Origin: Phallus indusiatus
Taxonomy: Eukaryota > Basidiomycota > Agaricomycetes > Phallales > Phallaceae
Direction of reading: 5' to 3'
Assembly: GCA_027605045.1 (NCBI GenBank)
Contig: JAQFWX010000015.1
Location: forward strand, 1,100,455-1,164,454
Length of the DNA stretch: 64,000 nt
A program made the translations under genes and the position numbers. The notes beneath the pieces were generated by a model. That model saw only the letters and a program-made list of their open reading frames with translations. It made no database searches and was not told the origin of the DNA. Of this stretch, positions 36,765-63,394 are shown piece after piece; the first letter of the stretch is position 1; each line of letters begins with the position of its first letter.

Positions 36765-37163
36765 TGTTAGGGCTACTCAGCTCAGGCTAGAGGGAGGGGA
36801 TCCTAAGATAATATATTGCGGAAAACACTAACTACTCACCTAGAGGGAGGGGATCCTAAGAGAACAAGCTTAGGGACCCTCACTCTAGGGACAGCGACTA
36901 TATACATGAAAAACGATAGCGCGGCGTGCGGCCCTGACACAGCTAAGTGCTAGGCGCCCGAACCGAACCTAAGCGACGTGATGTCACGGGCATCACGCCG
37001 AGTACGAGCGCGCGACGCGCGCGAGTAAAGAAAGTGAAATAGAGGCAGAACGAGGAAACGGAAAATGGAAGTAATGGACGGGAAATGTAAATGAAATAGA
37101 AATAAATATATACCGATGATAATAAATAAGGAAAGTAAGGGGACGCGGTAGCGTACCCTGACA
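36765..37163 (-). repeat. Element A 3' LTR
   Basis: 399 bp, same sequence as the other A LTR by eye. TGTCAGGG...CCCTAACA in the element's orientation, which differs slightly at the inner bases of the two ends. Contains duplicated gagggaggggatcctaag blocks. Confidence 0.95.
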
Positions 37164-37174
37164 CCATCCCCCCT

Positions 37175-40100: not shown

Positions 40101-41118
40101 ACTTGGGCTCGGAACCTGGCACAAGTTCTATCGGGTGATCCCACTTCTTCGACTGCGGCAACGAATCGAATGACTCCTTCGAGAAAATGTCGGCAAAGTC
40201 GTGGAACATCTCTGGCACGATGTCCCGAAAACCCTTGGGAGCTGGTGCGTCTGCGTTGTTGGCGTGGGCCTGAGCCAGTCGCTGGGAGATAGTCTCGGTG
40301 GCATATATGCGGTGAGTGTCGGGCTCGTCGGGTAGCATTGATATCGCGAACAGTCGATCACCCTCTTCAATCTCAGACTCGACATCAACCAGGTCTGGTA
40401 TATCAGGATCATCGGCCTCAGTGTTGTCGAGCTCTGGTAAAGGTGCGCGTCGGATCTGTTGGAACGCGCGCTTAGAGAGCTTACCCGCTGGCCAGCGTGG
40501 AGCACAAGACCGACAACTGGGGCTGCAGCGCATGAACTCCACTTGACCAGTTGTGTAGTCTATGACGGGATTGTGAGCCTTGAACCACGGCAGCCCAAAT
40601 AGGACGGGATACTTGAGCGAGGTAACGGCGAACAAGGTGCGTTCGGAATGATCCCGAAATCGAACAACCAGGTCAACGACGTGGGTGATAGAGCCAGCGT
40701 GGTTGGGCGTACCATCAACGTTGAACACGGGAATTGGTTTAGCAAGACGCACGGAGGGAAGCCGATGTTTCTCGACAAAGTCGCGGTCGAGGAACATACC
40801 GCTAGCTCCAGTGTCCAGCATGGCCTTGCTGTGCAGCAGGGCTCCAGTGTCAACACTCTGTAGTTCCACCGGGATCTCTAGCTTCTGCGTACCAGCAGTA
40901 GCTGCGAGTCGGTATTCGCTTGGCAACGCGCGACGTTGAGAAGGCGACAGCATACATGGAGTTGAAACAGAGCGTGTAGCAGGTGGAGACGATTCTTCGG
41001 GTTTAGCAGGGGATGCAGCAGGGGTAGTTAGATTCGAATCAGAAGTGTCATTTTGTTCGCGATCTATGTACAAAATGTCGAATCTATTAGATGTCGGCAA
41101 CGAGGGTGCATCGTTCAC
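37175..41118 (-). pseudogene. pol: Element A pol: protease-RT-RNase H-integrase-chromodomain, one frameshift in RT
   Basis: The reading frame opens at 41118, in the -1 frame relative to gag and overlapping its stop by 4 nt, with no ATG; a -1 frameshift probably makes Gag-Pol. Protease MLDTGASGMFLDRDF is near 40800. RT starts around FFIKKKDGSLRLIQDYRALN, and its FGLTNSPATFQ block is split: the frame changes by -1 at a run of five T (near 39747), after which 37175-39790 is open to the end. YIDDILIY is the RT active site. RNase H is followed by the HHCC integrase zinc finger (GHPGRFKTL ... CDMCLRTK), the D,D-35-E core (ISDRGPQF, HPQTDGQTERVN) and a chromodomain (RLEYKVRWEGYGPEHDQWEP). Element B shares the same frame break. 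Confidence 0.85.
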
Positions 41119-42425
41119 TCGTCGCCGTTTTGAAAATCCTCTACCTCTGCTGCAGCTACAGTCTCTCCCTCTGTCAGAGCAGAGTCACCACGTGTCTGGG
41201 CTTCTAGCGCATCTTTCTGGGCCAGCAGATGCGCGATACTGTCGTCTAATTCCTCGGGTTGAAGATATCGGATGTCATACGCACGAGGGCATTCGCGAGC
41301 CCAATGGCCTGCTGCTCCACAGCGACGACACCTGGTTGATTCTGGGCCAGCACGTCGACGGGCAGCGTCAACGTCCATCGGATCATGCCTAACCTGTGGT
41401 GCAGGAGCAGGAGCCGCAGGTCTTGGAGGCAACGTGGGCACGATTTGAGATGCTGGCCTGGGAGGTGGATAGGGAGGAGCCTGATAGGAAGGGGCAGGGG
41501 GCCTCCTCTGGATCTGGAGGGTCTGATACGACGGAAAAGGGTTGGGGCGAGGTCGATTAATGGGGACAGCTGCGGGATTTGTCTGAGCCGTTCCAGAGCC
41601 CACGAGTCGACGGCGAGCAGCGGTGAAGGCCTCGTTGGCACGCCTGTCCATGTCAAACATGCGTGCTTGCCTGATCCAGCCTTCGTAGTCGTGGAGTGCG
41701 GGTCGGTCCTTCATCGTCGCTACCAGAGATGCAATTGCCGGGTCTAAACCATTACGAAAGTACGTGTTAATGGCGAGACCTTCCGTAAAGCCAGCGTGCT
41801 CAATGAGTACGCGGAAGGCGTCTACATATTCCTCTACAGTCCTGTTGCCTTGGACATAGCGGTTGGAGTAGAGGGTGTTGATGGCGTCTTCTTGCTCGGA
41901 TTGTGGAAAGAAATCGGCCTTGAATCTTTCCCGGAAGGCATCCCAGTCAGCGAAGGGCTTCTCTCCTCTTTGATACCTTTTCAGCATAGATTCGCTGAAG
42001 GTAAGGGCGCGACCTTCGTTCATGTACGACATCGCCCAGCCGATCTTGAGTTCATCAGTCTCGAAATCGCGACTGCATATACTCATGTAAAACTCGACAG
42101 TGTTCCAAAAGGCGCGACCCTTGGAGCGATCTCCGTCGAACGAAGGAGGTACAGCAGGTCGGGTATTTCGGGAAGAACGTGAACTGGCTTGATGCTCAGG
42201 AGCCGGTGGTTGTCCAGACGAGGACGCGTCGCCCACAGGGGAGTTTTGGGTTGGAGCAGCTCTAGCCGCGTCTCGGATGCTCTGCAGCACCTCAATCATC
42301 TGTGAGGCCTGGGATTCCTGTCTTGCCAGGCGGGCATCCATTTCCGCGAACTGCCGCATAATAATAGTCGCCACATCGTTGAGGGTGACGAGTGGGGGTG
42401 CAGAGGGTGGAGGAGAAGAGTCCAT
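41115..42425 (-). CDS. gag: Element A Gag
   Basis: 436 codons from the ATG at 42425. MDSSPPPSAPPLVTLND is followed by a capsid-like helical region (FWNTVEFYMSICSRDF, WDAFRERFKADFFPQSEQ, RTVEEYVDAFRVLIEHAGF) and one CCHC zinc knuckle (CRRCGAAGHWARECP) near the C-terminus, then an acidic tail. It forms the virus-like particle of the retrotransposon and binds its RNA. Intact. Confidence 0.9.
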   Translation of the reverse strand: MDSSPPPSAPPLVTLNDVATIIMRQFAEMDARLARQESQASQMIEVLQSIRDAARAAPTQNSPVGDASSSGQPPAPEHQASSRSSRNTRPAVPPSFDGDRSKGRAFWNTVEFYMSICSRDFETDELKIGWAMSYMNEGRALTFSESMLKRYQRGEKPFADWDAFRERFKADFFPQSEQEDAINTLYSNRYVQGNRTVEEYVDAFRVLIEHAGFTEGLAINTYFRNGLDPAIASLVATMKDRPALHDYEGWIRQARMFDMDRRANEAFTAARRRLVGSGTAQTNPAAVPINRPRPNPFPSYQTLQIQRRPPAPSYQAPPYPPPRPASQIVPTLPPRPAAPAPAPQVRHDPMDVDAARRRAGPESTRCRRCGAAGHWARECPRAYDIRYLQPEELDDSIAHLLAQKDALEAQTRGDSALTEGETVAAAEVEDFQNGDE

Positions 42426-42573
42426 GAGAGAGAGAAAGGAAAATGGGGTTTTTAAGATGGAGCAGAGGGGTCGGTTATAGACGGGACTCGAGGGAAAATA
42501 CGACACTGCGATAGTCGGTGTCGAGCGATTTTTCGATAGCGAGTGTCGATAAAAACGGCCAGTCTGCGAGTGG

Positions 42574-42584
42574 AAGCTTGTTCT
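42574..42584 (-). promoter_or_regulatory. Element A primer-binding site (self-priming type)
   Basis: AGAACAAGCTT on the minus strand, 2 nt inside the 5' LTR, is complementary to AAGCTTGTTCT within the LTR just downstream of the TATATA box. No match to a tRNA 3' end beginning TGG was seen. Confidence 0.65.
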
Positions 42585-42586
42585 AC

Positions 42587-42985
42587 TGTTAGGGCTACTC
42601 AGCTCAGGCTAGAGGGAGGGGATCCTAAGATAATATATTGCGGAAAACACTAACTACTCACCTAGAGGGAGGGGATCCTAAGAGAACAAGCTTAGGGACC
42701 CTCACTCTAGGGACAGCGACTATATACATGAAAAACGATAGCGCGGCGTGCGGCCCTGACACAGCTAAGTGCTAGGCGCCCGAACCGAACCTAAGCGACG
42801 TGATGTCACGGGCATCACGCCGAGTACGAGCGCGCGACGCGCGCGAGTAAAGAAAGTGAAATAGAGGCAGAACGAGGAAACGGAAAATGGAAGTAATGGA
42901 CGGGAAATGTAAATGAAATAGAAATAAATATATACCGATGATAATAAATAAGGAAAGTAAGGGGACGCGGTAGCGTACCCTGACA
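42587..42985 (-). repeat. Element A 5' LTR
   Basis: 399-bp direct repeat of 36765-37163. In the element's orientation it holds a TATATA box about 28-33 nt upstream of AAGCTTGTTCT, the predicted transcript start. Confidence 0.95.
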
Positions 42986-43018: not shown

Positions 43019-43052
43019 GGTGGCGTTGAGGAACTTTTGCGCACCTCCAATC

Positions 43053-43444
43053 TAAGGCTGTTCACGGGTTATGACCTGCGGGTTTGGGTACCTGTTTTCA
43101 GGTACCCTTGGTCACCCAGACCCAGACCCGCACCCTTGCGGGTTTTGCCCACGGGTACCCGCGGTTTTAAGCGCCATACCCGCACCCGAAAAAAACCCGT
43201 TTTTTTTTGGGCACCCGCGGGTTTTTTGGGGTACCTGCAGGTACCCGCGGGTTTTCTATATAAAAATTTTCTGAAATTTGATGTTCAAACCCGCGGGTTT
43301 TGCAAAAAAATTTCAAAACCCAAACCCGCACCCTCGGGTCTTAAGCGAAATTAAACCCGCGGGTTTGGGTACCTGAACCCGCGGGTATTGTGACAGGTAC
43401 CTGTCACAGGTACCCGGGTATACCCATACCCGTGAACAGCCTTA
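43053..43444. mobile_element. hAT-type MITE, copy 2
   Basis: 392 bp, same 17-bp terminal inverted repeats as copy 1, flanked by the 8-bp duplication ctccaatc at 43045-43052 and 43445-43452. It differs from copy 1 at four positions by eye, each a CpG/TpG (or CpA) change. It sits in the shared upstream region of gene Y (minus) and gene V (plus). Confidence 0.9.
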
Positions 43445-45270: not shown

Positions 45271-45589
45271 TGTAACGGATCCACCGTATGCGGTGGATTG
45301 AGTATATGCCACTTGGGCATATGCAGAGGGCTTCGCCCTCTGCAGTAATTACTATTAGTACTTCTAATAATAGAGGCGCTTAACGCCTCTGGCTCGCCGT
45401 GACGCGGCGAGCCATTATGTAATAACTGTACATTAGTAGTAGTTACGCGCGTGCTGATTCAGCACGCGCATTTTGTTTTTACACCATAATAATACAGCAC
45501 CCTTGGTCTGTTATATTGGTGTGAGGACTACAGCGTGATAAAACTTGTGTACCGTACGCGGTACACTATAAAAAGTAACGAGCGTTACA
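45271..45589 (+). repeat. Element C 5' LTR
   Basis: 319 bp made largely of adjacent hairpins: stems of 8 bp at 45279-45298, 9 bp at 45323-45343, 7 bp at 45372-45390, 9 bp at 45391-45413, 10 bp at 45447-45469 and 8 bp at 45547-45566. A TATAAAA sits at 45567-45573, unusually close to the LTR end. Confidence 0.9.
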
Positions 45590-45674
45590 TCTTTTTTAAC
45601 ACCAAAGGCGTTAAAAACAACCCGCCGCTGTATTAAGCAAGCGAAATTAACCCTTCCTATTACAGGAGGATTCA

Positions 45675-47181
45675 ATGGCTCCTACTACCAGGAGTCAGAG
45701 TGCACCAGATCGTGGTACACCTGATTCCAATCAGCCTGACCCACCCGGGCCAGTGCAAACCGAAAATCCCGACCCGTCTAGGGAAGGAACCCTCGAAGGA
45801 GAGTCATCCACATGGGAGAGAGTGGATGCATCAACACAAAATCCCACTCGTCCTGCGTCGCAGACGATGGAACATCAGCCCCAACTCGCTGATGAAGAAG
45901 ATGAGGACGTAAAGTCCGTAGCATCTGGTCGCTCCAGACTTAGCGTCAGGAGCGACAGGTCCATCCGAAGGGACGAGACGATGAACGCTGTTCACGCATC
46001 GTTACTCGATGGCGTGAGGAACGGGAATATGTCCCCGTCAGAACTGCAGAGACTAGCTCGATTAATCGAGAATGTCAACGCAGGAGTTGAAAACCCCGAG
46101 CCAGAGCCTGTTACCACGGGCTCTGACAGGGACCAAGTCAGGACAACAGACTTGTCTCCTGAAGCAGAGCCTGCACGAGCACGCTCTGACAAAGGAAAAG
46201 CAGAGCGGTAGACCCGCCTGCACCAGGTACGGGATCTACTCGCCCTAGACCAGCAGGGCCGACGAGTCGCCTTGCCTATCAATTCACAAACCCAGCCCCA
46301 CAAGCTAGGTTTGCTACACCGACGGGACCGACATATGCCAGTCCGTCACCAGCGACAGCTGGTAATTCCCAATCCCCTGAGCCTGCACCAACAGGCACCA
46401 GACAACGTTCCCAGAACGTTACCCCAGGACCGAGTACGCGTCCTGATAGACCTCCTACTCAAGGAGCTACAGCATATACAGCTCCTAGAAACCCCGGCCC
46501 CGAAATAGAGGCTGGCAGAGAAACAGTGAGACGAATGCACCGTTTCACAAGACAACCGCCTCACGAGTCTGACGCGGTTGGTGACTATATCGATACCGAG
46601 ATAGCCACGCGACTGGTGAACCAGTCGCGAAATGGAGCACCCCACGAGAGGATGCTGAAGTGGTCGCCCAAGCTGCCCTCGAATACCAGAGGATAGCAAG
46701 GCTACTCTCCGACAGAGCAATCCGTACGCATGCACGGGCTGTGGAGACGGCCACTAACGCGCTCGAGGAAGCTGTAGCAGGCTCTCTCGAGACTGACACT
46801 CCCAACGAGCAGCAAATGCGGATCATCCAAGATAGGATCCGCATCGCGAGGGACGCGCGTATGAACGCGGTCCGCCATGCTCGTGTGCTTGAAGGTGGCT
46901 ATAATGCCATCACTGGCGATAGGATCCCATCGCCAGACCCAGCCACAAGCTCAAGTCGTCCAGACGACAGAGCATCACCCCTGGCAGACAACTGCCAAGG
47001 CAAAGTGCCGAGCCCAATGGGCAGAGGCAAGCATCTGCTAACCCAGCAGAAGCACCACGTATCGATCCATATGATGGATACGCTCGTCGACCACAGTATG
47101 GCGAGGATCTCCGCGCCACACCGTTCGATGAGGAACGTGTTGAAAGGTTTGACCCTTTCAACGACGACGCCCAGTACTTGA
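45675..47181 (+). pseudogene. Element C N-terminal Gag region, frameshifted
   Basis: ATG at 45675 (MAPTTRSQSAPDRGTPDSNQ) opens 178 codons of disordered Pro/Glu/Ser-rich sequence. The same kind of sequence continues in a second frame to about 46660 and a third frame from 46660 (YQRIARLLSDRAIRTHARA, helical) to 47181, then reaches the capsid ORF. At least two or three frame changes are needed to read it through, so this part is decayed or needs an unusual expression route. Confidence 0.6.
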
Positions 47182-47194
47182 GGGCGTCATAGCC

Positions 47195-49069
47195 ATGGTT
47201 CAAGAAGCCCTGATTGCAAACAGGGATATGATGCCAGGCAACTCGCCCCTTGCGAAAGCAGGAGCGAAGATAGGGCTCCTGCCCACATATAGCGGCTCGT
47301 CCAGAGCCGAGGACTTCGACAACTTTGTGTCGGGTCTGTTACGCTGGCTACGCGTAAACCACCTGCTTGGAGAAGTCAGCCAAGCAGAGCAACTCTCCTT
47401 TCTAGGCATGCGCCTAGAAGGGTTGGCACAAGAGTGGTTCACCCAGAACGTGGAACGAGGTACTCGTCCCATGCATGAGTGGACCCTAGTCCCCGCTTTA
47501 CGGAGACTACACGAACGATTCCTCCCACCCCACTCGAGAAGTGAGGTGGCGATCCAGTTCGAACGCGAACGGCAAGGATCGCACTCTGTACACGAATACA
47601 TGAGTGCGTTACTCACGCTAGCCAACAGACTAGCGCACCCTCCTGATGATTATACATTCAGGAGGAGGTTCCTTGATGGGCTGAACCACAGCCTCGCCGC
47701 TGAAGTAGCATTCAGAGGCGGTAGTCCTGAGCAGATGTCTGCTAAGGAACTTCTTGCACTCGCCATCCAAGTAGAGGAGGCGTTCAAGAAGTGGAGGTCG
47801 ATAACGGCCTCCCAAGGAAGCACTACCCGTCCAACGGGTAGTAGTGGCAGTAGTGGTAGTGGCAGCAGCAGCAGCCACACCAACTTGGCCAGACAAGCGC
47901 ATTCAAACAATATGCGCTTGAACCAGAGGAACCAAGGTCCCTCTGCGCGTCCTCATGAGACGCGAACTAATGGCAATTCCCCATTGGGGAATCGCCCCTC
48001 GAGCTCATCAAGCTCGAGAAATCATAACTCGCAGCCCACTAGGACTGCCCCAACTAGTACGAACAATCGCACTAGCACTACCCCTCCCACGTGTTTCAAC
48101 TGTGGGCAGGTGGGACATTACAGAAATGCGTGCCCCAGACTGAGACAGGTACGAGCCAATGTGGGTCGTATCGAAGAGGTTGAAGAGACCTCTGGCGAGA
48201 CATCGAACGATGCCCCGCAGGAGAACGTGGAAGACCCCACAGCTGAACAAGCTGTGGAGGAAGAGGTGGCCCAAGACGAGCCCACCAACGACCCCGTCGA
48301 GGACGACGAGGGCATCCAATACCAATGGGACGATGATGACAATGGTCCCAGTGTATACATGCTCCTCACAATTGGTGACGAGTATGAGGAGCGCAGACTG
48401 CACTTCGCGGTCCACAAGTCATCGCCATTGGATGACAATGAGTCCTCGCTCGCTACGAGCAAGGAACCACTCTATGACCATACGGCTAGAGTGAGCTCTC
48501 GTGCCCCAACACGAGACAGAAACGCATCGAGACCCATTGAGGGTTTCTGGCCAGTCAATGGCCAATTGGCCCACTGCCTAGTCGACAGTGGATGCCAGGG
48601 GATGATCATGTCCCCTCATTTCTCTCTTGCCACCGGGGCAAGAACCTTCAAGCTCGACAAACCTGTCGTGCTGCAGCTGGCCGTTAAGGGCAGCAAGTCT
48701 TCCATCCAGTATGGAACGTACACCCGAATCCAATTCGGAGGTATCGATGTCCAAGAGTACTTTGACATCGTCAACATCGATCACTATGATGTGATCATTG
48801 GCGTCCCATTCCTGAGACGCTACAACATCTGCCTGGATTTCAGCAGAGGTACAATCACCCGCGACGGCGAGGTGATTGACACCAATCACCATGTGATTGG
48901 ACACGCTCCTGAAACAGGAGCGATGGTGCTAGCCAGCACCCAACATTCCAGCTCCTCCGTCCCTGAGATGACGGAAGAGAATATCCCAGCACTCATCGAG
49001 TACTGGAAGAACAAGTACAGTGACCTGTTCGGTCCTGTCCCTTCCCGACTTCCCCATTTCGGGAAGTGA
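47195..49069 (+). CDS. gag: Element C Gag capsid, zinc knuckle and protease
   Basis: 624 codons. Retrotransposon Gag domain (KIGLLPTYSGSSRAEDFDNF, EGLAQEWFTQNVERGTRPMH, HSVHEYMSALLTLANRLAHP), a Ser/Gly/Asn-rich linker, zinc knuckle CFNCGQVGHYRNACP near residue 300, an acidic linker, then an aspartic protease with the DSG active site (HCLVDSGCQGMIMSPHF) near residue 465. It ends just where RT should start, by a frame break. The coding sequence contains many perfect hairpins, for example 47894-47920 and 47998-48018. Confidence 0.8.
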   Translation: MVQEALIANRDMMPGNSPLAKAGAKIGLLPTYSGSSRAEDFDNFVSGLLRWLRVNHLLGEVSQAEQLSFLGMRLEGLAQEWFTQNVERGTRPMHEWTLVPALRRLHERFLPPHSRSEVAIQFERERQGSHSVHEYMSALLTLANRLAHPPDDYTFRRRFLDGLNHSLAAEVAFRGGSPEQMSAKELLALAIQVEEAFKKWRSITASQGSTTRPTGSSGSSGSGSSSSHTNLARQAHSNNMRLNQRNQGPSARPHETRTNGNSPLGNRPSSSSSSRNHNSQPTRTAPTSTNNRTSTTPPTCFNCGQVGHYRNACPRLRQVRANVGRIEEVEETSGETSNDAPQENVEDPTAEQAVEEEVAQDEPTNDPVEDDEGIQYQWDDDDNGPSVYMLLTIGDEYEERRLHFAVHKSSPLDDNESSLATSKEPLYDHTARVSSRAPTRDRNASRPIEGFWPVNGQLAHCLVDSGCQGMIMSPHFSLATGARTFKLDKPVVLQLAVKGSKSSIQYGTYTRIQFGGIDVQEYFDIVNIDHYDVIIGVPFLRRYNICLDFSRGTITRDGEVIDTNHHVIGHAPETGAMVLASTQHSSSSVPEMTEENIPALIEYWKNKYSDLFGPVPSRLPHFGK

Positions 49070-49071
49070 AT

Positions 49072-50828
49072 CACCAGATTCCTCTTATTGAGCCCAATAA
49101 GAAGATCCGGTACCACCTTCCCAGGTGTCCGGATGCGCTCAGCGCTACTCGCTGAAAAGATTCAGCGATACGTAGCTGCAGGCTGGTGGGAACCAACTGT
49201 AGCTACACAGGCAATCCCTATGCTTTGCCTGCAGAAACGAGCCGTAGTCCTAGCACTACGGACCGTGTTCGATCTGCGCCTGCAGAACGAAAACAGAGAA
49301 GGACGTAACGCCCTTCCCTGACCAGGAAACCATCCGCCAGAACGTGGCGAGACACAAATACAGATCAAAAATTGATCTGACTGAGGCGTACGAGCAAGTA
49401 CGCATAGTCCCAGAGGACGTCCACAAGACGACCTTTGCCACCATCTATGGCACTTTCAAGAGCCATGTCATGCAGCAAGGAGACTGTAATGCCCCATCGA
49501 CGTTTCAACGTCTGATGACTCACATATTTAGGGACTGCATCGGTCGTTCGACGGATGCATACATAGACGACGTGTTCGTCTATTCAAACACAATAGATCT
49601 GCATCAGCAGCATCTAGAGAATGCCTTCTCGCGTCTGCGAGAAGCACAACTTTACCTAAGTAGTCGTAAAGTTGATTTGTACTCTAAGCGACTGGAGTGC
49701 TTAGGCCACATCATCGACGATGATGGCATCCATCCCGATCACGAGAAGATGGACAAAATACGTGAGTGGAGAACTCCACGCACGTATAATGATGTCCAGA
49801 AATTTCTGGGCCTCGTACAATACGTTGCGGCATACCTACCAGGGGTAGCCGCATACACTACACCACTATCAGGGTGTACGTACAACAACAGACCGTTCGT
49901 ATGGACGCCGTTGTTGAACAAGTGCTTTGATTCAATCAAAGCACTCACGCGAAAGGCTCCTATCTTGAAGCCTATTAACGTGGACGACCCAGATCCAATT
50001 TGGGTCGTAACCGACGGCTCTAAATGTGGCGTCGGTGCCTATTATGGGCAAGGGCCTACATGGCAACGTAGGCCAGCAGGGTTTCTCTCGAAGAAGTTCA
50101 CCCCTGCTCAATACAACTACCGCACCCATGAGCATGAGCTCATCGCGGTACTTGAAGCCTTCCTCAAGTGGGAAGACAAACTACTAGGGCGTAGATTCAC
50201 CCTAGTAACGGACAACGAGGCCATGGTCCACTTCAAGACCCAGCCTCGCATGTCACCGCGTCAAGCACGGTGGTATGAATACCTGTCTCGCTTTGACTAC
50301 GAGACGATTCATGTCAAGGGCGTCACTAACAATGTCGCCGATGGCCTCTCTCGTTATTACGAAGAGGACACTCCGGATGAGGTTCACCCTCCGGAGGTAT
50401 ACGTCAATGCTGACGTTAGACTTGATCCCGAAGGGGATCATCTTCCCATCGAAAGAAGGGATGAAGTGAGAGTGAACGTTATTACACGTTCACGAGTACG
50501 AGAGGAACCTCGAGTTGAAGGTCCCTCAAATACTACACCTTCTGATATTACAGAAGCGCAATCCGATGAGGATATACTTGCTCTAAGTGCAGAGCAAGAC
50601 AGCAAGCTTCTTAAAGCCAAAATTGAGGGCTTTGCTGAATTCACCTCGCTGATACAGCAAGGTTATCACAAGGACCCAGTATTTAAGCTGGTTCTTGCCA
50701 ACCCGAACGCTCACAAGGCGTTTGGAATTAAAAATCAACTGATCTTTACCAAGAATCAGTTCCTCCGCGATGTATTATGCGTCCCCATAACGCATTTTAC
50801 AAGGGGAGGAGGATCACTGAGATTATAA
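49072..50828 (+). pseudogene. pol: Element C reverse transcriptase and RNase H
   Basis: The N-terminal RT part (49072-49320) is open in one frame and the rest (49344-50828) in another. Blocks: YRSKIDLTEAYEQVRIVPED, QQGDCNAPSTFQRLMTHIF and YIDDVFVYSN (RT active site, with YIDD), then RNase H (VVTDGSKCGVGAYYGQG, YNYRTHEHELIAVLEAFLKW, LVTDNEAMVHF). A frame break follows at about 50800. The finger-domain part is shorter and more diverged than in element A. Hairpins here reach a 12-bp stem (49921-49945). Confidence 0.75.
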
Positions 50829-52233
50829 TCAGTGAGGCCCACCAAATTGTTGGGCACTTCGGACGTTACAAAACGTCTCAGTACGTTAGACAAGCGTACT
50901 GGTGGAAATCGATGATTGAAGACATCGATACGTTCTGCAGATCCTGCGGAACGTGCCAGACCAATAAAGGGGAGAATAATCACCCCAGTGGTCTGTTAAA
51001 ACAACTCCCGATTCCCAATAGACCTTGGGAATCGATTGGAATGGACTTCGTCGGTCCATTACCCGTTTCAAACGGCCACGACTTCCTATTCGTCGTGATT
51101 GACAGACTGACCTCTATGGTTCGTCTGATGCCAACCACCACCAAGCTGACCGCCAAGGGCACAGCCTGGTTATACCTCAGTGAAGTCGTAAGACTCCACG
51201 GTGTCCCTGACTCAATCGTGAGTGACAGGGATGCACGATTCACTGCCAAGTTCTGGCAGGAACTGCAACGCCTAATGGGGACACGATTGCTCATGTCCAC
51301 GGCGTTCCATCCGCAAACGGATGGATCTACCAGCGAGCCAATCGCTCGATTGGCCAAATACTTCGTTCCGTGATACAGAACGATCAAAAAGATTGGGCCG
51401 AAAGGATCCCAATGGTGGAGTTTGCTATTAATAGCAGCACCAGCGAAACCACTGGTTTCGCGCCGTTTGAACTCAATTACGGCTATCTTCCCAGTTTGGG
51501 AAGGAAAATTGAGACGAACACCAAATTCAAAGGTGTTCAACACTTTGCTCAACAGGCAAAGTGGAATCTCATGATAGCGCATGACGCTATCATAGCCAGT
51601 CGCGTTAAACAGGCTCACTACGCGAACAACTCACGGCGCGATGCACCGGAGTATAAAGAGGGTGACCTCGTCTATCTGTCGACGAGGAACCTCAACCTCC
51701 CCAAGGGGAGAGTTAAGAAGTTGATCCCGCGTTATGTGGGACCATACAAAATATTGTCCGCTAAAGACAATATCACAGTGAAACTTGAGCTCTCTGAGGA
51801 GCTCAAGCAACGTCGCATAAATCCCGTATTTCACGTGGATTTGATTAAACCTCACATCGCTAATGACGACGAGAGGTTTCCACGCCGCGATACACTCACG
51901 GCGTATGATTTTGGACAGCCAGACGATGCTGAATGGCACGTCGAGGAACTCCTAGCTCATCGCTGGAGTGGAACTCGCGAGAAAGATCTCGAGTTCCTAG
52001 TCCAGTGGACCCTTGGGGATACCACTTGGGAACCTTACAGTAACTGTAAGGACTTGCAAGCTCTAGACGAGTACTTGCAATTACGAGGCGTAAACGAGCC
52101 TCGGCAGCTGCCACGACTATCCAATCACGGAGAGTCGCGGACCAGCAACAAGCGCCCAGATCCCACTCGGGATCTGCTTGAAGATCCCACCCACAGGGAT
52201 CCACTGGCACTTCACTGCTACGCGGTGAGGTAA
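50777..52233 (+). pseudogene. Element C integrase and chromodomain-like C-terminus, one frameshift
   Basis: HHCC finger (EAHQIVGHFGRYKTSQYVRQ ... CGTCQTNK), first Asp in MDFVGPLP, second in IVSDRDARF, and HPQTDGSTSE where the frame breaks just at the catalytic Glu region (about 51335). The second frame, 51370-52233, continues with FAPFELNYGYLP, GDLVYLSTRNLNLPKGRVKK and a chromodomain-like WHVEELLAHRWSG ... FLVQWTLGDTTWEPYSNC. Integration of cDNA is the normal role; this copy would need frameshifting or help from another copy. Confidence 0.75.
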
Positions 52234-52314
52234 TTTTCACTTGGGCGCTCCATGAGGCCGCCCAAGTATATAACCCAAAAGTCCGTTCACGGTCTTTTCT
52301 CCTCAACACCCCCA

Positions 52315-53454
52315 TGCCTGACAGCAAGGGAAAGCAACGCGAACGATCACGCTCGCGGTCGCCTACGCCGCAACCTGTTAGTAGGTTCAAAAAGCAGAGG
52401 CTCAACTGGCCCTGCAAAGGTCCGAATGGACCTTAGACGCGATGGACGGATGCATATCCGTCTATCATAACAATGATAGTTGCACTGCGTGCAACGACTT
52501 TGCCAGTCACCTGGCAGGCCCCGCTGGCAGCGGGCAATCATCCTTGACCATGATATGGTCAAGCAGGCCGTCTACAAGGCCTTTCCCTTCATAAGGAGGG
52601 AGTACTATCATCTAGACGAACGTCTAGAAGAAGCTGAAAAGGACGTCAAGTCCTTGACAGACCACCTCGACGATGCGAATCGTCGTATCTGCGAGCTGAA
52701 AGCTCGCATTGCTGAACTTGAACGTTCAGCGTCGACGGCAGGCCCGTCGACTACCCCATCGACCTCCAAAAAGCGGTCGAGAGACCAGGCCGATAAAGCG
52801 CCTGAACCATCCCAGGCAGCCCCTTTGCCTGATATTTTCAACGACATGTCGTCTGACGACGACATGGAAGACATAGTCGATGATAACGACTATGATGACG
52901 ACGCCTCCATCGCGTCGTCCACCAAACGCAAACCTCAGCGTACCTACGCTGATGCAACCAAGGCATCGGGCTCTCGCGATGCTGCCCCGGTTTCTCCAAG
53001 GAAACCCTCTGGTCCGTATCCACGGACCAAGCCAGGATGGGACTCCAACCGGGACCCATGGCCCTTCTTCGTCAAGGGCTTCGACCCCACTGTTAGTGGG
53101 GATCACTCTCTGGTGCCTGGCACCCCCAATCCTACTGCATGGTATAACACCTGCAGCCTCGACGAACCATTGTTCGTCGAGATTGGAACCCGGGTTTGGA
53201 CCGACCCCCCGGTGTTCACGTACCCCGATGACAGGGGGGTTCACATGCGTATTTCATACGCATGGACTCGCTGGCGCAGATCCATGAAGGAGCGTCGCCT
53301 GGCGAGAAAGACCGCCAAGCTTGAAGCTATGGAGGCTGCCGCCAACCGTCCATCGGTGGTGTCTATCTCGGGAGAACTCATACACCCCGAGATCAAGTAT
53401 TTAATCAATACTTGGAATGCGGACCCTAACCAGGTCCTCCTTACATCCGACTAA
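52315..53454 (+). CDS. Element C extra ORF 1: coiled-coil protein of unknown function
   Basis: An SR-rich basic start (MPDSKGKQRERSRSRSPTPQ at 52315) is separated by frame changes from the main open frame, whose likely part begins near 52555 and ends at 53454. It contains a coiled coil (ERLEEAEKDVKSLTDHLDDA, RICELKARIAELERS), an acidic Asp-rich stretch, a basic linker, and a conserved-looking C-terminal domain with PWPFFVKGFDPTVSGDHSLV, CSLDEPLFVEIGTRVW and ISYAWTRWRRSMKERRLAR. It is not an env protein by sequence: no signal peptide or membrane segment. It sits between pol and the 3' LTR on the same strand, overlapping the next ORF at its stop. Confidence 0.6.
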
Positions 53455-54066
53455 TGTCGGATGGATCATTAAACCCTCAAGATGTTGAGGTGTTCGCATG
53501 GCTCAAACGAGTCACACGTACTCGTGAAGTACGTGCCAAGTTCCTCGAGAAGGCGGCTGAGTGCCTCCTCGACCCCGCACTTACTGTGTGGGAAGAAGTT
53601 CTCGGTGGTAAGGGTAATTCCTCCACCCACCTGCCTTCCACGCTTATGGAAGGCTACACTGCTCCTTCGAGTGCAAATCCCCCTCCTCCATTACCATAGA
53701 GGAGGTGATTCGCTCCATGCATGCCAATGGAGCGACGACAAGACGCGTCACTGAGGTGATCGCGCCCCTTCTCCAACGATACGCCAATGGAGAAGATGTC
53801 AATCGCATCGCGCATGACTATCGCGTGCGCCGTGGACTGGATCGTCCAACAAAAAGGCGCGTACGACTCAGTCGTCCGCCCCCGCCGTCCATGCGTCGGC
53901 TTCACCTGCCAGCATCGTGGCAGGCCAGCCTAACAAGGTCTACTCCCCGTCCGTCCCAATTCAGATGACGGACGAGGAATTGTTAAGGCCCCCTGAGGAC
54001 CTTGACGCGCCGCATCCGAGTGCCTCGGAGAGCATGGAGATTGACTACAGCAATCCCTCTGACTGA
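53454..54066 (+). pseudogene. Element C extra ORF 2, frameshifted
   Basis: ATG at 53454 overlaps the previous stop (taATG). MSDGSLNPQDVEVFAWLKRV and the following helical segment run to about 53700, then the frame changes. 53705-53968 gives VTEVIAPLLQRYANGEDVNR, and a further frame ends MTDEELLRPPEDLDAPHPSA ... DYSNPSD with a stop near 54064. No known domain. The start/stop overlap suggests coupled translation of the two extra ORFs (inference). Confidence 0.45.
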
Positions 54067-54128
54067 TTACAGTCAGACGCCTCCTCTTCGCGATCCCATG
54101 ACTTGGAGTCCAAGTCACAAGGGGAGGA

Positions 54129-54448
54129 TGTAACGGATCCACCGTATGCGGTGGATTGAGTATATGCCACTTGGGCATATGCAGAGGGCTTCGCCCTCTG
54201 CAGTAATTACTATTAGTACTTCTAATAATAGAGGCGCTTAACGCCTCTGGCTCGCCGTGACGCGGCGAGCCATTATGTAATAACTGTACATTAGTAGTAG
54301 TTACGCGCGTGCTGATTCAGCACGCGCATTTTGTTTTTACACCATCATAATACAGCACCCTTGGTCTGTTATATTGGTGTGAGGACTACAGCGTGATAAA
54401 ACTTGTGTACCGTACGCGGTACACTATAAAAAGTAACGAAGCGTTACA
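54129..54448 (+). repeat. Element C 3' LTR
   Basis: 320 bp, near-identical to 45271-45589 (seen: ccataata/ccatcata and gagcg/gaagcg). It is preceded by the polypurine tract at 54119-54128. Confidence 0.95.
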
Positions 54449-57598: not shown

Positions 57599-57991
57599 TG
57601 TCAGGGTACGCTACCGCGTCCCCTTACTTTCCTTATTTATTATCATCGGTATATATTTATTTCTATTTCATTTACATTTCCCGTCCATTACTTCCATTTT
57701 CCGTTTCCTCGTTCTGCCTCTATTTCACTTTTTTACTCGCGCGCGCGCTCGTACTCGGCGTGATGCCCGTGACATCACGTCGCTTAGGTTCGGTTCGGGC
57801 GCCTAGCACTTAGCTGTGTCAGGGCCGCACGCCGCGCTATCGTTTTTCATGTATATAGTCGCTGTCCCTAGAGTGAGGGTCCCTAAGCTTGTTCTCTTAG
57901 GATCCCCTCCCTCTAGGTGAGTAGTTAGTGTTTTCCGCAATATATTATCTTAGGATCCCCTCCCTCTAGCCTGAGCTGAGTAGCCCTAACA
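57599..57991 (+). repeat. Element B 5' LTR
   Basis: Begins TGTCAGGG and ends CCCTAACA. Contains the TATATA box at 57852-57857. Confidence 0.95.
57852..57895 (+). promoter_or_regulatory. Element B LTR promoter: TATA box and predicted transcript start
   Basis: TATATA at 57852-57857. About 28-33 nt downstream, AAGCTTGTTCT (57885-57895) is exactly complementary to the primer-binding site at 57994-58004, as expected if the transcript starts here and primes itself. Confidence 0.6.
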
Positions 57992-57993
57992 GT

Positions 57994-58004
57994 AGAACAA
58001 GCTT
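57994..58004 (+). promoter_or_regulatory. Element B primer-binding site (self-priming type)
   Basis: AGAACAAGCTT, 2 nt after the 5' LTR end, is the reverse complement of 57885-57895 over 11 nt. Tf1/sushi-type chromoviruses prime reverse transcription with the first 11 or so bases of their own RNA. Confidence 0.65.
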
Positions 58005-58154
58005 CCACTCGCAGACTGGCCGTTTTTATCGACACTCGCTATCGAAAAATCGCGCTCGACACCGACTATCGCAGTGTCGTATTTTTCCCTCGAGTCCCGT
58101 CTATAACCGACCCTCTGCTCCATCTTAAAAACCCCATTTTCCTTTCTCTCTCTC

Positions 58155-59465
58155 ATGGACTCTTCTCCTCCACCCTCTGCACCCCCACTCGTCACCCTCA
58201 ACGATGTGGCGACTATTATTATGCGGCAGTTCGCGGAAATGGATGCCCGCCTGGCAAGACAGGAATCCCAGGCCTCACAGATGATTGAGGTGCTGCAGAG
58301 CATCCGAGACGCGGCTAGAGCTGCTCCAACCCAAAACTCCCCTGTGGGCGACGCGTCCTCGTCTGGACAACCACCGGCTCCTGAGCATCAAGCCAGTTCA
58401 CGTTCTTCCCGAAATACCCGACCTGCTGTACCTCCTTCGTTCGACGGAGATCGCTCCAAGGGTCGCGCCTTTTGGAACACTGTCGAGTTTTACATGAGTA
58501 TATGCAGTCGCGATTTCGAGACTGATGAACTCAAGATCGGCTGGGCGATGTCGTACATGAACGAAGGTCGCGCCCTTACCTTCAGCGAATCTATGCTGAA
58601 AAGGTATCAAAGAGGAGAGAAGCCCTTCGCTGACTGGGATGCCTTCCGGGAAAGATTCAAGGCCGATTTCTTTCCACAATCCGAGCAAGAAGACGCCATC
58701 AACACCCTCTACTCCAACCGCTATGTCCAAGGCAACAGGACTGTAGAGGAATATGTAGACGCCTTCCGCGTACTCATTGAGCACGCTGGCTTTACGGAAG
58801 GTCTCGCCATTAACACGTACTTTCGTAATGGTTTAGACCCGGCAATTGCATCTCTGGTAGCGACGATGAAGGACCGACCCGCACTCCACGACTACGAAGG
58901 CTGGATCAGGCAAGCACGCATGTTTGACATGGACAGGCGTGCCAACGAGGCCTTCACCGCTGCTCGCCGTCGACTCGTGGGCTCTGGAACGGCTCAGACA
59001 AATCCCGCAGCTGTCCCCATTAATCGACCTCGCCCCAACCCTTTTCCGTCGTATCAGACCCTCCAGATCCAGAGGAGGCCCCCTGCCCCTTCCTATCAGG
59101 CTCCTCCCTATCCACCTCCCAGGCCAGCATCTCAAATCGTGCCCACGTTGCCTCCAAGACCTGCGGCTCCTGCTCCTGCACCACAGGTTAGGCATGATCC
59201 GATGGACGTTGACGCTGCCCGTCGACGTGCTGGCCCAGAATCAACCAGGTGTCGTCGCTGTGGAGCAGCAGGCCATTGGGCTCGCGAATGCCCTCGTGCG
59301 TATGACATCCGATATCTTCAACCCGAGGAATTAGACGACAGTATCGCGCATCTGCTGGCCCAGAAAGATGCGCTAGAAGCCCAGACACGTGGTGACTCTG
59401 CTCTGACAGAGGGAGAGACTGTAGCTGCAGCAGAGGTAGAGGATTTTCAAAACGGCGACGAGTGA
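58155..59465 (+). CDS. gag: Element B Gag
   Basis: 436 codons, the same protein as in element A, with capsid-like region and one CCHC zinc knuckle (CRRCGAAGHWARECP). Intact. A short leader of 163 nt separates the LTR from the ATG. Its stop overlaps the pol frame by 4 nt. Confidence 0.9.
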   Translation: MDSSPPPSAPPLVTLNDVATIIMRQFAEMDARLARQESQASQMIEVLQSIRDAARAAPTQNSPVGDASSSGQPPAPEHQASSRSSRNTRPAVPPSFDGDRSKGRAFWNTVEFYMSICSRDFETDELKIGWAMSYMNEGRALTFSESMLKRYQRGEKPFADWDAFRERFKADFFPQSEQEDAINTLYSNRYVQGNRTVEEYVDAFRVLIEHAGFTEGLAINTYFRNGLDPAIASLVATMKDRPALHDYEGWIRQARMFDMDRRANEAFTAARRRLVGSGTAQTNPAAVPINRPRPNPFPSYQTLQIQRRPPAPSYQAPPYPPPRPASQIVPTLPPRPAAPAPAPQVRHDPMDVDAARRRAGPESTRCRRCGAAGHWARECPRAYDIRYLQPEELDDSIAHLLAQKDALEAQTRGDSALTEGETVAAAEVEDFQNGDE

Positions 59466-62400
59466 ACGATGCACCCTCGTTGCCGACATCTAATAGATTC
59501 GACATTTTGTACATAGATCGCGAACAAAATGACACTTCTGATTCGAATCTAACTACCCCTGCTGCATCCCCTGCTAAACCCGAAGAATCGTCTCCACCTG
59601 CTACACGCTCTGTTTCAACTCCATGTATGCTGTCGCCTTCTCAACGTCGCGCGCCAAGCGAATACCGACTCGCAGCTACTGCTGGTACGCAGAAGCTAGA
59701 GATCCCGGTGGAACTACAGAGTGTTGACACTGGAGCCCTGCTGCACAGCAAGGCCATGCTGGACACTGGAGCTAGCGGTATGTTCCTCGACCGCGACTTT
59801 GTCGAGAAACATCGGCTTCCCTCCGTGCGTCTTGCTAAACCAATTCCCGTGTTCAACGTTGATGGTACGCCCAACCACGCTGGCTCTATCACCCACGTCG
59901 TTGACCTGGTTGTTCGATTTCGGGATCATTCCGAACGCACCTTGTTCGCCGTTACCTCGCTCAAGTATCCCGTCCTATTTGGGCTGCCGTGGTTCAAGGC
60001 TCACAATCCCGTCATAGACTACACAACTGGTCAAGTGGAGTTCATGCGCTGCAGCCCCAGTTGTCGGTCTTGTGCTCCACGCTGGCCAGCGGGTAAGCTC
60101 TCTAAGCGCGCGTTCCAACAGATCCGACGCGCACCTTTACCAGAGCTCGACAACACTGAGGCCGATGATCCTGATATACCAGACCTGGTTGATGTCGAGT
60201 CTGAGATTGAAGAGGGTGATCGACTGTTCGCGATATCAATGCTACCCGACGAGCCCGACACTCACCGCATATATGCCACCGAGACTATCTCCCAGCGACT
60301 GGCTCAGGCCCACGCCAACAACGCAGACGCACCAGCTCCCAAGGGTTTTCGGGACATCGTGCCAGAGATGTTCCACGACTTTGCCGACATTTTCTCGAAG
60401 GAGTCATTCGATTCGTTGCCGCAGTCGAAGAAGTGGGATCACCCGATAGAACTTGTGCCAGGTTCCGAGCCCAAGTCTTGCAAGATCTACCCGCTGTCAC
60501 CTAACGAACAGGCCGAGTTAGATGCGTTTCTGGAAGAGAACCTTGCGTCTGGACGAATCCGGCCCTCCAAGTCGCCCATGGCGTCCCCGGTGTTCTTCAT
60601 TAAGAAGAAAGATGGCTCTCTTCGCCTTATTCAGGACTATCGCGCGTTGAATGCCATGACAATCAAGAATCGCTACCCGCTGCCTCTGATCTCGGAACTC
60701 ATCAACAAACTGCAAGGTGCCCGGTACTTTACCAAGCTGGACGTGCGCTGGGGTTACAACAACGTACGGATAAAGGAAGGAGATGAGTGGAAGGCCGCTT
60801 TCCGCACCAATCGTGGCCTCTTCGAGCCCTTGGTGATGTTTTTGGTCTCACTAACAGTCCTGCCACCTTCCAGACAATGATGAATGAGATCTTTGAAGAC
60901 ATGATCTCGGAAGGTGTCGTTGCCGTCTATATCGACGACATTCTCATTTACACTCGGGATCGGGAACAGCACGACAGGGTGACACGACGCGTTCTCGAAC
61001 GTCTCCGTGAACACAAACTGTATCTCAAGGCAGAGAAGTGCGAGTTCTGCCGGACTAAGATCGAGTACTTGGGTGTTGTCATTTCCGAGAACACCGTCGA
61101 GATGGATCCCGCGAAAGTCTCGGGTGTCAGAGACTGGCCTGTCCCGAAGAACGTCACGGAGGTCCAGTCCTTCCTGGGCTTCGCCAACTTCTACCGTCGG
61201 TTTATCAAGGATTTCGCGCGTATTGCCAATCCCATGTTCGGGTTAACCAAGAAGGATACGTCCTTCGTCTGGTCCGACACTTGTCAGCACGCTCGATACT
61301 CTGAAGTCGTCAATCACCTCTGCTCCTATTCTCCTCATCCCCAACCCCGCTAATCCTTACCGGGTTGAAGCAGACAGCTCCGACTTTGCAACAGGCGCAG
61401 TTCTTTCACAGTTGTCGAGCGAAGACGGTAAATGGCACCCAGTTGCTTTCTTCTCGAAGGCCCTCAGTCCCGTTGAACGCAACTACGAGATTCACGACAA
61501 GGAGATGCTCGCTATCATACGGTCCTTAGAGGAATGGCGACACTTTCTTGAAGGCGCGTCTCACCCTATCGACATACGGACTGATCACAAGAATCTCGAG
61601 TATTTCATGTCCGCGCGTAACCTCAATCGTCGTCAAGCCAGATGGTCAGTATATCTCTCACGATTCGACTTTACTCTGCAGCATATACCGGGTAAGTCGA
61701 TGGGTAAACCTGATGGCTTGTCCCGTCGCCCAGATCATGGCTCGGGAAAGGACGACAATCGTGGCGTCACCTTAATCCGACCCGAAATGTTTGCAATCAA
61801 TGCTCTGCAAACATTCCGTCTTAAGGGGGAGGAGGAGGATCTTCTACGCCAGATTCGCAAGGCCAATCGGGAAGGCAAGGTTGAGGATAGTGTGTCCAAA
61901 GCCGTTGCAACACTTCGTGCACTGGGTGGTCGTTCGGCTCACTCGTCGGAATGGTTTGAAGACCAGGACCTCCTCTACTATCGCGGCAAGGTTTATGTGC
62001 CAAATGTGGACGAATTGCGTCGGAAAATCCTTTCCAGACACCACGACACCAAACTCGGTGGTCACCCGGGTCGTTTCAAGACTCTTGAGCTCGTTTCGCG
62101 CACCTTTGGTGGCCAGGTGTCTCTAGGTATGTACAACGCTATGTAGAGGCCTGCGACATGTGTCTACGTACGAAACCGTCTCGTCATGCCCCTATGGACT
62201 TCTCCGACCCACAGAAGTGCCAAGTCGACCCTGGGAACACATCTCAGTCGACTTCATCGTGGAGCTGCCAGAATCCAACGGTTTCGACGCGATCCTCTCT
62301 GTCGTCGACTCTCTCACCAAACGGGTTCATTTCGTGCCGACATTTACGACACTTGACGCGACAGGTCTGGCCCGACTGTACCTCCAGCACGTCTGGAAGC

Positions 62401-63362
62401 TCCATGGGCTTCCCATGAAGGTGATCTCTGACAGGGGCCCCCAGTTCGCGTCCCGCTTCACGCAGGAGCTTTCTAGGCTCCTTGGCATACGGCTTGCACC
62501 CTCTACTGCATATCATCCTCAAACCGATGGTCAGACAGAACGCGTCAATGCAGAAGTCGAGCAGTATCTTCGGCTCTTCACCTCAGAGCGACAGGACGAC
62601 TGGGACCAGCTGCTGCCCATGGCTGAGTTCGCATACAACAACCATGTGCACTCAGCCACGCGTTCGACACCTTTTGAGCTCGACACTGGACGACATCCTC
62701 GTATGGGATTCGAACCGCAGGTTGCCGACTCGAAGATCGAATCTGTCAACGAGTTCAAGACGCGTATGGAATCGACGATAGAGGAAGCCAAGGCCGCTAT
62801 AGCCAGGTCGAAAGACGAGATGGCCAAGTATTACGATCGGAAACACATCCCAGCACCTGAATACAAGGTTGGCGACAAGGTATACCTCGATTCGAGCGAC
62901 ATCCGCACCACCAGACCTTCCGCCAAATTGTCGCATCGGTACCTAGGCCCATTTCCGATAGTCAACAAGGTCGGATCCCATGCATACAGGCTACGTCTAC
63001 CACTGTCGATGTCAAGACTCCACCCCGTCTTCCATGTCGGGAAGTTACGTCCAAAGGTCGAAGATACGATCCCGGGTCGTCGTGTTAAGGCTCCACCACC
63101 TCCTGAGGTCAGAGACGACGGTGAACACTACGTCGTGGAACGGATTCTGGACAGTCGTGTCTTCCGGAGACGACTCGAGTATAAGGTGCGTTGGGAAGGC
63201 TATGGTCCCGAGCACGATCAGTGGGAACCCGAGTCGAATATTGCAGCCCCAGATCTCATTAAGGAATTCCACCGCGAACATCCGAGTGCGCCACGCTCGA
63301 TAAATGGCCTTCTTTTCCATCGTCGCCTCGGTTTGATTTTTCTAAGTTACAAGCGTCATTAG
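59462..63362 (+). pseudogene. pol: Element B pol, shared RT frameshift plus B-specific deletions
   Basis: Same domains as element A pol. It shares the -1 frame change at the T run near 60839. Compared with A it also has a 3-nt deletion near 59652 and frame-breaking deletions: 2 nt near 61292 (between RT and RNase H), 1 nt in a T run near 62104, 1 nt in a C run near 62190 (which restores the frame after a short mistranslated piece of the integrase finger), and 1 nt near 63326 that changes the C-terminal tail. Open pieces: 59462-60880, 60787-61353, 61412-62146, 62160-63362. Confidence 0.85.
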
Positions 63363-63394
63363 TCGAAGCTACAGGCGTCGGGACGCCGCCTCGT

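What the first reader, a model, noticed from the sequence alone, without database searches (positions are those of the whole stretch)
45271..54448. Gypsy element C is saturated with perfect short hairpins along its whole length, coding sequence included
Seen directly: adjacent inverted repeats at 45279-45298 (stem 8), 45323-45343 (9, loop 3), 45391-45413 (9), 45447-45469 (10, loop 3), 47894-47920 (9), 47998-48018 (8, loop 5), 49564-49582 (7), 49625-49644 (8, loop 4), 49647-49674 (9, loop 10), 49921-49945 (12, loop 1), 52543-52563 (9, loop 3), 52691-52707 (7, loop 3), and many more. In equal-base random sequence, an 8-bp perfect stem with a loop of 1-12 nt is expected about 0.2 times per kb; here several per kb are seen by eye. 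They are in LTRs, gag, pol and the extra ORFs alike. Elements A and B in the same window lack the pattern. Inference: either selection for a folded RNA genome (packaging, protection, translation control), or a replication process that repeatedly turns near-palindromes into perfect ones (intrastrand template switching by the RT). I know of no named system of this kind.
Basis: partly seen in the sequence, partly recalled or inferred. Interest (0 to 1): 0.93.

Follow-up and report, generated by a model that had tools for sequence, protein, structure and literature searches.

The report
Retrotransposon built of tiny hairpins throughout
A fungal jumping gene has a sequence, protein-coding parts included, that folds into a nearly continuous chain of short hairpins of a preferred length, apparently favoured on both strands, which may keep its strands from pairing with each other.

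Summary
Confirmed. Element C has 73 perfect stems of at least 8 bp with loops up to 12 nt, against 1.33 in dinucleotide shuffles; codon-preserving shuffles do not explain it. A, B and the left flank lack it. C folds into about 300 hairpins with a mode of 8 pairs; sister family D (about 70% nt identity) has a weaker version with a mode of 6. C stems are not shared with D, but within C they change less than their surroundings.

Folding strongly predicts synonymous codon choice in C. Six ssRNA phages, run as controls, look like plus-strand RNA with G·U tolerated in long stems. In C, G·U is penalised as much as A·C or more, and minus-strand wobble counts at least as much as plus. Fold-back copying finds no support.

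Best reading: selection for self-folding of both strands, perhaps to stop complementary strands annealing. Closest known kind: genome-scale ordered RNA structure. The function is inferred, and no DNA of relatives from other species was reachable.

The parts
45271..45589 (+). 5' LTR (TG...CA); 7 stems of at least 7 bp, of which 5 have at least 8 bp and 3 at least 10 bp
45591..47194 (+). leader and N-terminal part of ORF1 (open pieces 45651-46211, 46190-46696 and 46585-47181 in this copy); 14 stems of at least 7 bp
   Evidence: one continuous 1973-aa ORF1 in copy L018
47153..49069 (+). ORF with gag, CCHC zinc knuckle and aspartyl protease; 14 stems of at least 8 bp in 47195-49066 against 0.66 in codon-preserving shuffles
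49254..50828 (+). ORF with reverse transcriptase and RNase H; 10 stems of at least 8 bp in 49344-50825 against 0.49
50732..51373 (+). ORF with integrase zinc-binding domain and integrase core (core just below Pfam's cut-off)
51226..52233 (+). ORF with Tf2-type SH3 and chromodomain; 8 stems of at least 8 bp in 51370-52230 against 0.33
52480..53454 (+). first open piece of ORF2, in the env position (coiled coil, no Pfam match over cut-off); 13 stems of at least 8 bp against 0.89
53618..53968 (+). second open piece of ORF2 in this copy
   Evidence: the sequence recurs in the 585-aa ORF2 of L018
54129..54448 (+). 3' LTR
49921..49945 (.). example hairpin in coding sequence, 12-bp perfect stem, loop 1
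49563..49583 (.). example hairpin, 8 bp, built across the YxDD active-site codons of the reverse transcriptase

Best explanation
The element's whole sequence is under selection to fold back on itself locally, on both strands. The target is a chain of short Watson-Crick hairpins (about 8 bp and loops near 4 nt in C, about 6 bp in sister family D), placed anywhere the protein code allows. SHOWN: density, coding independence, preferred stem length, local span, reduced change in stems during the element's replicating life, and wobble pairs not tolerated as plus-strand RNA folding would predict. INFERRED: that the force is selection, and that it serves to keep complementary single strands apart (sense RNA versus minus-strand cDNA or antisense RNA), so that they stay single-stranded, do not make long duplexes for the host's RNA-silencing machinery, and offer small RNAs no open target.
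For: Codon-preserving shuffles: total folding energy of five ORF segments lies 3.8 to 16.8 s.d. below them. About 300 hairpins in 8.56 kb, mode 8 pairs (72 vs 14.3 shuffled); D mode 6 (73 vs 26.8); perfect stems of exactly 8: 44 vs 0.7 in C; of exactly 6: 67 vs 11.4 in D. Pairs spanning under 30 nt: 2210 of 2658 native, 1086 of 2460 shuffled. Variants shared by at least 3 of 18 C copies: stem sites 2.2%, loops 7.1%, outside 4.2%; singletons 4.1, 5.0, 5.0%. In 839 stem pairs: 13 G.U, 15 A.C, 2 other single changes and 3 double changes to a new Watson-Crick pair; background per 1000 pairs 31.7, 30.9, 16.2, 1.1. D stems: shared variants 7 of 794 sites vs 80 of 4521 outside. Codon choice: negative log-likelihood 1613 falls to 1122.5 with two folding terms in C; no effect in A. 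Both strands: separate wobble terms in C are plus 0.26 +/- 0.07 and minus 0.37 +/- 0.05 (copy L018 0.36 and 0.44); coliphage control 0.24 and 0.07. Fourfold sites in long stems: C copy L018 G.U 1 seen vs 13.5 expected, A.C 16 vs 22.6; phages G.U 24 vs 15.6, A.C 8 vs 10.6. Strong self-structure as a way to avoid duplex formation between complementary strands is stated for Q-beta-type RNA (passages of PMC6913131). The host genome has Piwi, RdRP and RNase III matches.
Against: No transcript, small-RNA or chemical-probing data exist here; the purpose is inferred. D leans towards the plus strand (wobble plus 0.26/0.20, minus 0.15/0.13), like the phages. Twofold sites show equal, not minus-leaning, penalties in C, and the strongest minus-leaning counts come from the strictest of four thresholds. 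The choice between R+ with R-, R+ with D- and similar pairs is not significant by bootstrap in most comparisons, and R+ with D- is also the best pair for coliphages, which have no DNA stage. D's trait is much weaker although it is also multicopy and recent. Excess of double Watson-Crick changes is small (3 to 5 seen, 1 to 2 expected; one comparison shows 1 vs 1.2).
Confidence: 0.4

Rival explanations
1. Minus-strand cDNA folding: the hairpins matter in the single-stranded first-strand DNA made by the reverse transcriptase (protection, compaction, timing of plus-strand synthesis), and RNA folding is a by-product.
For: Best single predictor of codon choice in C is DNA-parameter folding of the minus strand (1145.7 vs 1149.8 to 1199.7 for the other five; L018 1904.8 vs 1921.2 to 1962.0). 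One-mismatch stems: 20 A.C vs 2 G.T on the plus strand (shuffle 0.80 and 0.43). D shared changes: A.C 7 (8.0 expected), G.U 0 (4.5 expected).
Against: Adding plus-strand terms improves the fit. In D the plus-strand DNA model is slightly better than the minus (1256.0 vs 1265.8; 2339.6 vs 2344.0). Singletons show a T>C over A>G asymmetry that can add A.C mismatches.
Confidence: 0.2
2. Classical GORS: selection for a folded plus-strand RNA genome, for stability, translation control or evasion of RNA sensing.
For: MFED (350-nt windows) 40.2 and 37.3% in two C copies, 16.3% in D, 1.6% in A, 17.7 to 33.2% in six ssRNA phages; positions not conserved between C and D while the degree of folding persists; plus-wobble term in C is above zero.
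Against: In C plus-strand RNA folding is among the worst single predictors (1186.5 vs 1145.7 best), while it is the best in phages (though nearly tied with D+ in coliphages, 2759.0 vs 2760.9). G.U is not favoured over A.C in C. Few GNRA and no TNCG among 86 tetraloops (6 and 0).
Confidence: 0.15
3. Docking or packaging: hairpins of a set length bind Gag, nucleocapsid or ORF2 protein along the genome.
For: Preferred stem length differs between two families with different Gag and ORF2 (ORF2 29% identical).
Against: No common loop motif: tetraloops are merely A-rich, and the commonest occur 4 times in 86. A plus-strand packaging signal should tolerate G.U.
Confidence: 0.13
4. Mutation pressure: reverse transcriptase or another polymerase folds back and turns near-palindromes into perfect ones.
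For: Strand-symmetric Watson-Crick pairing at twofold sites; LTRs and ORFs alike; protein sequence itself bent towards hairpins, 1.4 to 2.5-fold for stems of at least 8; one loop inversion TTC/GAA in an LTR hairpin.
Against: 0 of 42 same-branch variant clusters match a nearby reverse complement with two flanking bases (1 of 42, in both haplotypes, with one). Arms differ from D evenly (|L-R| 1.70, null 1.47 +/- 0.24, 27 stems). One inversion site only, while control placements without a closing pair gave 26 hits in 421,290. Transversion-type mismatches are purged more than transitions. Single-base correction cannot be excluded.
Confidence: 0.1

Closest known systems
[quoted passage not shown]
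   Same: Hundreds of consecutive stem-loops through coding sequence; pairing partners not conserved between relatives while the degree of folding is; detected as MFED.
   Different: LTR retrotransposon, not an RNA virus; higher MFED than the values quoted in those passages (highest 23.4%, another shuffle method); hairpins very short and of preferred length; Watson-Crick-biased with minus-strand weight in C.
Self-structured ssRNA phage genomes (MS2, Q-beta, SP and three environmental ssRNA phages; duplex-avoidance idea in PMC6913131, passages seen)
   Same: Strong local structure shaping synonymous codons; both strands contribute to the fit.
   Different: Plus strand dominates and G.U is tolerated in long stems in the phages; MFED 17.7-33.2% vs 37-40%; no peak at 8 bp.
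Ty3/Gypsy chromodomain LTR retrotransposons
   Same: gag, protease, RT, RNase H, integrase, chromodomain order.
   Different: Six other Gypsy-type loci looked at here (A, B, L034-L037) lack the hairpins; an ORF of about 580 aa in the env position without detected relatives.
Palindrome-bearing LTRs of plant Sireviruses (recalled, no call)
   Same: Palindromes in LTR elements.
   Different: Recalled as confined to LTR cis-regions; here the whole element including coding sequence.

Membership tests
GORS-type structured genome | Folding energy lower than sequence-order controls across the genome | tested here: met
GORS-type structured genome | Many stem-loops spread through coding sequence, no conserved pairing between relatives | tested here: met
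GORS-type structured genome | Structure of the plus-strand RNA, G.U tolerated | tested here: not met
   C; D is ambiguous
GORS-type structured genome | Positive-strand RNA virus, link with persistence | tested here: not met
   LTR retrotransposon domains and LTRs
Ty3/Gypsy chromodomain retrotransposon | LTRs; RT-RNase H-integrase-chromodomain order | tested here: met
   (integrase core 31.2 bits, just under its cut-off of 32.6; chromo 25.5 over 25.1)
Fold-back template-switch product | One arm copied as a block from the other; clustered changes matching a nearby reverse complement | tested here: not met
Packaging-signal array | Shared loop motif | tested here: not met
Anti-annealing (duplex-avoiding) genome | Both complementary strands self-fold | tested here: met
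   (computed only)
Anti-annealing (duplex-avoiding) genome | Less duplex or small RNA in vivo because of the structure | not testable with these tools
   no transcript or small-RNA data

The most novel reading that the evidence does not exclude
A lineage of LTR retrotransposons has rebuilt its whole genome, LTRs and proteins included, as a chain of about 300 hairpins of a family-specific length (8 bp in C, 6 bp in D) on both strands, as armour against annealing of its own complementary strands and so against RNA silencing and loss of single-stranded cDNA. This would be a structure code running under the protein code at almost every codon.
Probability: 0.35. Interest if true: 0.9.

Novelty: new variant of a known kind. 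Interest (0 to 1): 0.8.

Why it matters
If true, genome-wide self-structure is not only a matter of RNA viruses: a host-genome parasite shows it more strongly than six ssRNA phages run through the same pipeline, with a measurable preferred stem length and a strand signature that can be tested. It would make it possible to ask directly, in fungi with removable RNA-silencing genes, what such structure is for, a question still open for GORS. It also offers a codon-level statistical test (wobble tolerance on each strand) that tells plus-strand RNA selection from selection on the other strand.

Tried and rejected
Chance, base composition, dinucleotides, protein and codon usage: rejected. Insertion of hairpin modules: not supported for the pol part, where C and D align without the hairpins being extra sequence (third positions differ 57% in stems and 57% outside). 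Conserved individual elements: rejected, stems are not kept in D (paired 0.643 vs 0.625 in pseudo-pairs). Loop-motif recognition: none seen. Thermodynamic threshold instead of a length preference: G+C content falls only slightly with stem length (0.58 at 6 bp to 0.53 at 9 bp in C; 0.53 to 0.44 from 6 to 8 bp in D), so a pure energy threshold is not favoured. An early reading that A.C excess proves minus-strand structure was softened after twofold sites showed symmetry and revived only in part. Relatives' DNA elsewhere: none in viral contigs or genome contigs; 552 protein relatives at E <= 0.001, the best 120 listed, the named ones among them fungal, best 57% identity. ORF2: no relative among 8000 scored candidates; structure prediction uninformative (mean pLDDT 42.3, three sequences). 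Papers: ten searches, listings only, showed no title or abstract on hairpin-saturated coding sequence in LTR elements; passages were read in two papers.
Full report
WHAT IT IS. Element C (45271-54448) is a Ty3/Gypsy LTR retrotransposon with gag, zinc knuckle, protease, RT, RNase H, integrase and a chromodomain, LTRs of about 320 bp, and an ORF in the env position. In this copy the frames are broken into pieces; copy L018 has ORF1 of 1973 aa and ORF2 of 585 aa open, and sister-family copy L030 has 2002 and 573 aa. The own genome has at least 40 places matching a 1.6-kb piece (41 rows; 40 of 66 candidates scored) and 87 scored matches to the RT piece, including a sister family D at about 74% RT identity, 70% at nucleotide level.

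OBSERVATION. 73 perfect stems of at least 8 bp in C against 1.33 in shuffles; A and B have 2 each; 7 in the 29 kb left flank. Codon-preserving shuffles leave 0.17 to 0.89 per segment where 3 to 14 are seen. Density of stems of at least 7 bp runs from 8.6 per kb (ORF1 N-terminal part) to 16.4 (ORF2) and 21.9 (LTR). Mean z is -3.74 per 120-nt window; the minus strand -3.29. Four other Gypsy loci have mean z -0.14, -0.55, 0.29 and 0.22; the second of them, L035, has a slightly raised count of 6-bp stems (5.8 per kb). C copies keep the trait: 33 to 78 stems of at least 8 bp per 10-kb locus in L009-L026, against 6 to 17 in L027-L033 (one of these 6.2 kb; L032 also holds a C-type LTR).

ARCHITECTURE. 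Pairs are local: 2210 of 2658 span under 30 nt, 1086 of 2460 in shuffles. With G.U switched off and span at most 45, C gives 300 hairpins covering 77% of the sequence (58% shuffled); total pairs per hairpin peak at 8 (72 vs 14.3). D peaks at 6 (73 vs 26.8); A and a host stretch show no peak. Perfect stems repeat this: C 8 bp 44 vs 0.7, then 13 at 9 bp; D 6 bp 67 vs 11.4, then 19 at 7 bp, that is, beyond the preferred length stems extend about as often as chance pairing would. Loops are mostly 3-6 nt, A-rich, without a motif.

EVOLUTION. C stems are not kept in D: paired 0.643 vs 0.625 in pseudo-pairs (L029; the other five D copies 0.600-0.658 vs 0.616-0.627). The trait persists while positions turn over. 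Within C, variants shared by at least 3 of 18 copies are rarer in stems (2.2%) than in loops (7.1%) or outside (4.2%), while singletons, mostly later mutations, differ little (4.1, 5.0, 5.0%). Stem pairs show about half the background of both G.U- and A.C-making changes and about a seventh of other mismatches. Pairwise comparisons vary: against L024, A.C changes are not reduced (20 vs 20.0) while G.U changes are (4 vs 17.7). D shows the same on small numbers. The amino-acid sequence is bent too: with synonymous codons shuffled, C proteins still give 2.47-fold (window segments), 1.40-fold (L018 ORF1) and 2.08-fold (L018 ORF2) the stems of at least 8 bp expected from locally permuted codons; D 1.29 and 1.52, A 0.99, B 1.19.

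STRAND. A choice model at synonymous codons asks which folding predicts the codon used. In C any folding term cuts the negative log-likelihood by hundreds (1613 to 1145.7-1199.7 for single terms); minus-strand DNA is best, WC-only plus-strand RNA next, ordinary plus-strand RNA fifth of six. L018 agrees in the best term and puts ordinary plus-strand RNA last by 0.4. For D the best single term is plus-strand DNA. In ssRNA phages plus-strand RNA is best, in coliphages only just (2759.0 vs 2760.9 for plus-strand DNA); two of the coliphage segments were skipped for in-frame stops. A nested test separates wobble benefit by strand: coliphages plus 0.24, minus 0.07; environmental ssRNA phages 0.23 and 0.13; C 0.26 and 0.37; L018 0.36 and 0.44; D 0.26 and 0.15; L030 0.20 and 0.13. 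At twofold sites C penalises G.U and A.C alike, while phages spare G.U in longer stems (AC minus GU 0.55 +/- 0.22 at six flanking pairs, 0.29 +/- 0.15 at five, 0.00 +/- 0.10 at four; C -0.43 +/- 0.30, -0.05 +/- 0.21, -0.05 +/- 0.16). At fourfold sites with seven flanking pairs, C copy L018 has G.U 1 vs 13.5 expected and A.C 16 vs 22.6; the window copy 2 vs 10.0 and 7 vs 14.6; at four flanking pairs the contrast is weak (0.68 vs 0.73; 0.54 vs 0.76). So plus-strand RNA structure alone does not explain C; both strands, the minus at least equally, do. Whether the minus strand is cDNA or antisense RNA is not settled: bootstraps between the leading two-strand models mostly include zero, and the best pair for L018 is R+ with R-, for L030 R+ with D-.

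MECHANISM. Fold-back copying was tested directly: no arm asymmetry, no variant cluster of 42 explained with two flanking bases, a single loop inversion, without excess over control placements. That leaves selection as the more likely force. A demand that both complementary strands fold is what avoidance of annealing would produce; for Q-beta-type RNA strong intramolecular structure is described as a way to avoid duplex formation (PMC6913131, passages). The host has RNA-silencing gene families (Piwi 20, RdRP 33, RNase III 6 exon-level matches). This functional step is inference.

AGAINST KNOWN KINDS. The nearest kind is GORS: in PMC7642675 (passages) MFED is 7.5-10.7% for HCV, about 15% for SARS-CoV-2 and 23.4% at most among vertebrate RNA viruses, with structure agnostic to which bases pair. 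With 350-nt windows and dinucleotide shuffles C has 40.2 and 37.3%, D 16.3%, six ssRNA phages 17.7-33.2%, A 1.6%; the shuffle methods differ, so only the values are strictly comparable. C meets the GORS features of extent and position-independence but not plus-strand, G.U-tolerant pairing, and it is not an RNA virus. Hence: new variant of a known kind.

LIMITS.

Noticed in passing
29932-30326 and 43050-43444: A 395-nt direct repeat (98.7% identical, 13.1 kb apart, element A between the copies) that is itself rich in palindromes around GGTACC, with z of -1.2 to -5.9 per 120 nt; not C-like, perhaps an LTR pair of another element.
   Followed up: partly
L014:5639-6032, L015:2178-2576, L021:5859-6250, L024:3485-3880, L025:7433-7828 and others: An unrelated insert of about 395 bp, TGTTAGGG...CCCTGACA, sits in several C and D copies, in some with visible 5-bp duplications (for example caaac, atcac, catat, gaaac): looks like solo LTRs of another family.
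   Followed up: partly
52480-53968; L018:566-2323; L030:557-2278: ORF2 in the env position, about 580 aa, coiled coil, 29% identical between C and D, no Pfam match over cut-off and no relative among 8000 scored candidates; the structure model was too poor to use.
   Followed up: partly
45570-54127 across 18 copies: Singleton variants are strand-asymmetric: T>C 68 vs A>G 29 on the coding strand, while C>T and G>A are equal (135, 137).
   Followed up: no
47390-48030: A patch in which 6 copies (L018 group) differ from the window copy far more than elsewhere; both haplotypes carry hairpins, some of them different: a mosaic of C subfamilies.
   Followed up: partly
45322-45344; L021 and L008: The 3-nt loop of a perfect 10-bp LTR hairpin is TTC in most copies and GAA, its reverse complement, in others: a probable loop inversion.
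   Followed up: partly
36763-42884 and 57599-63800: Elements A and B share a 10-bp hairpin in reverse orientation (38760-38789, 61786-61815) and are probably one family inserted in opposite directions.
   Followed up: no
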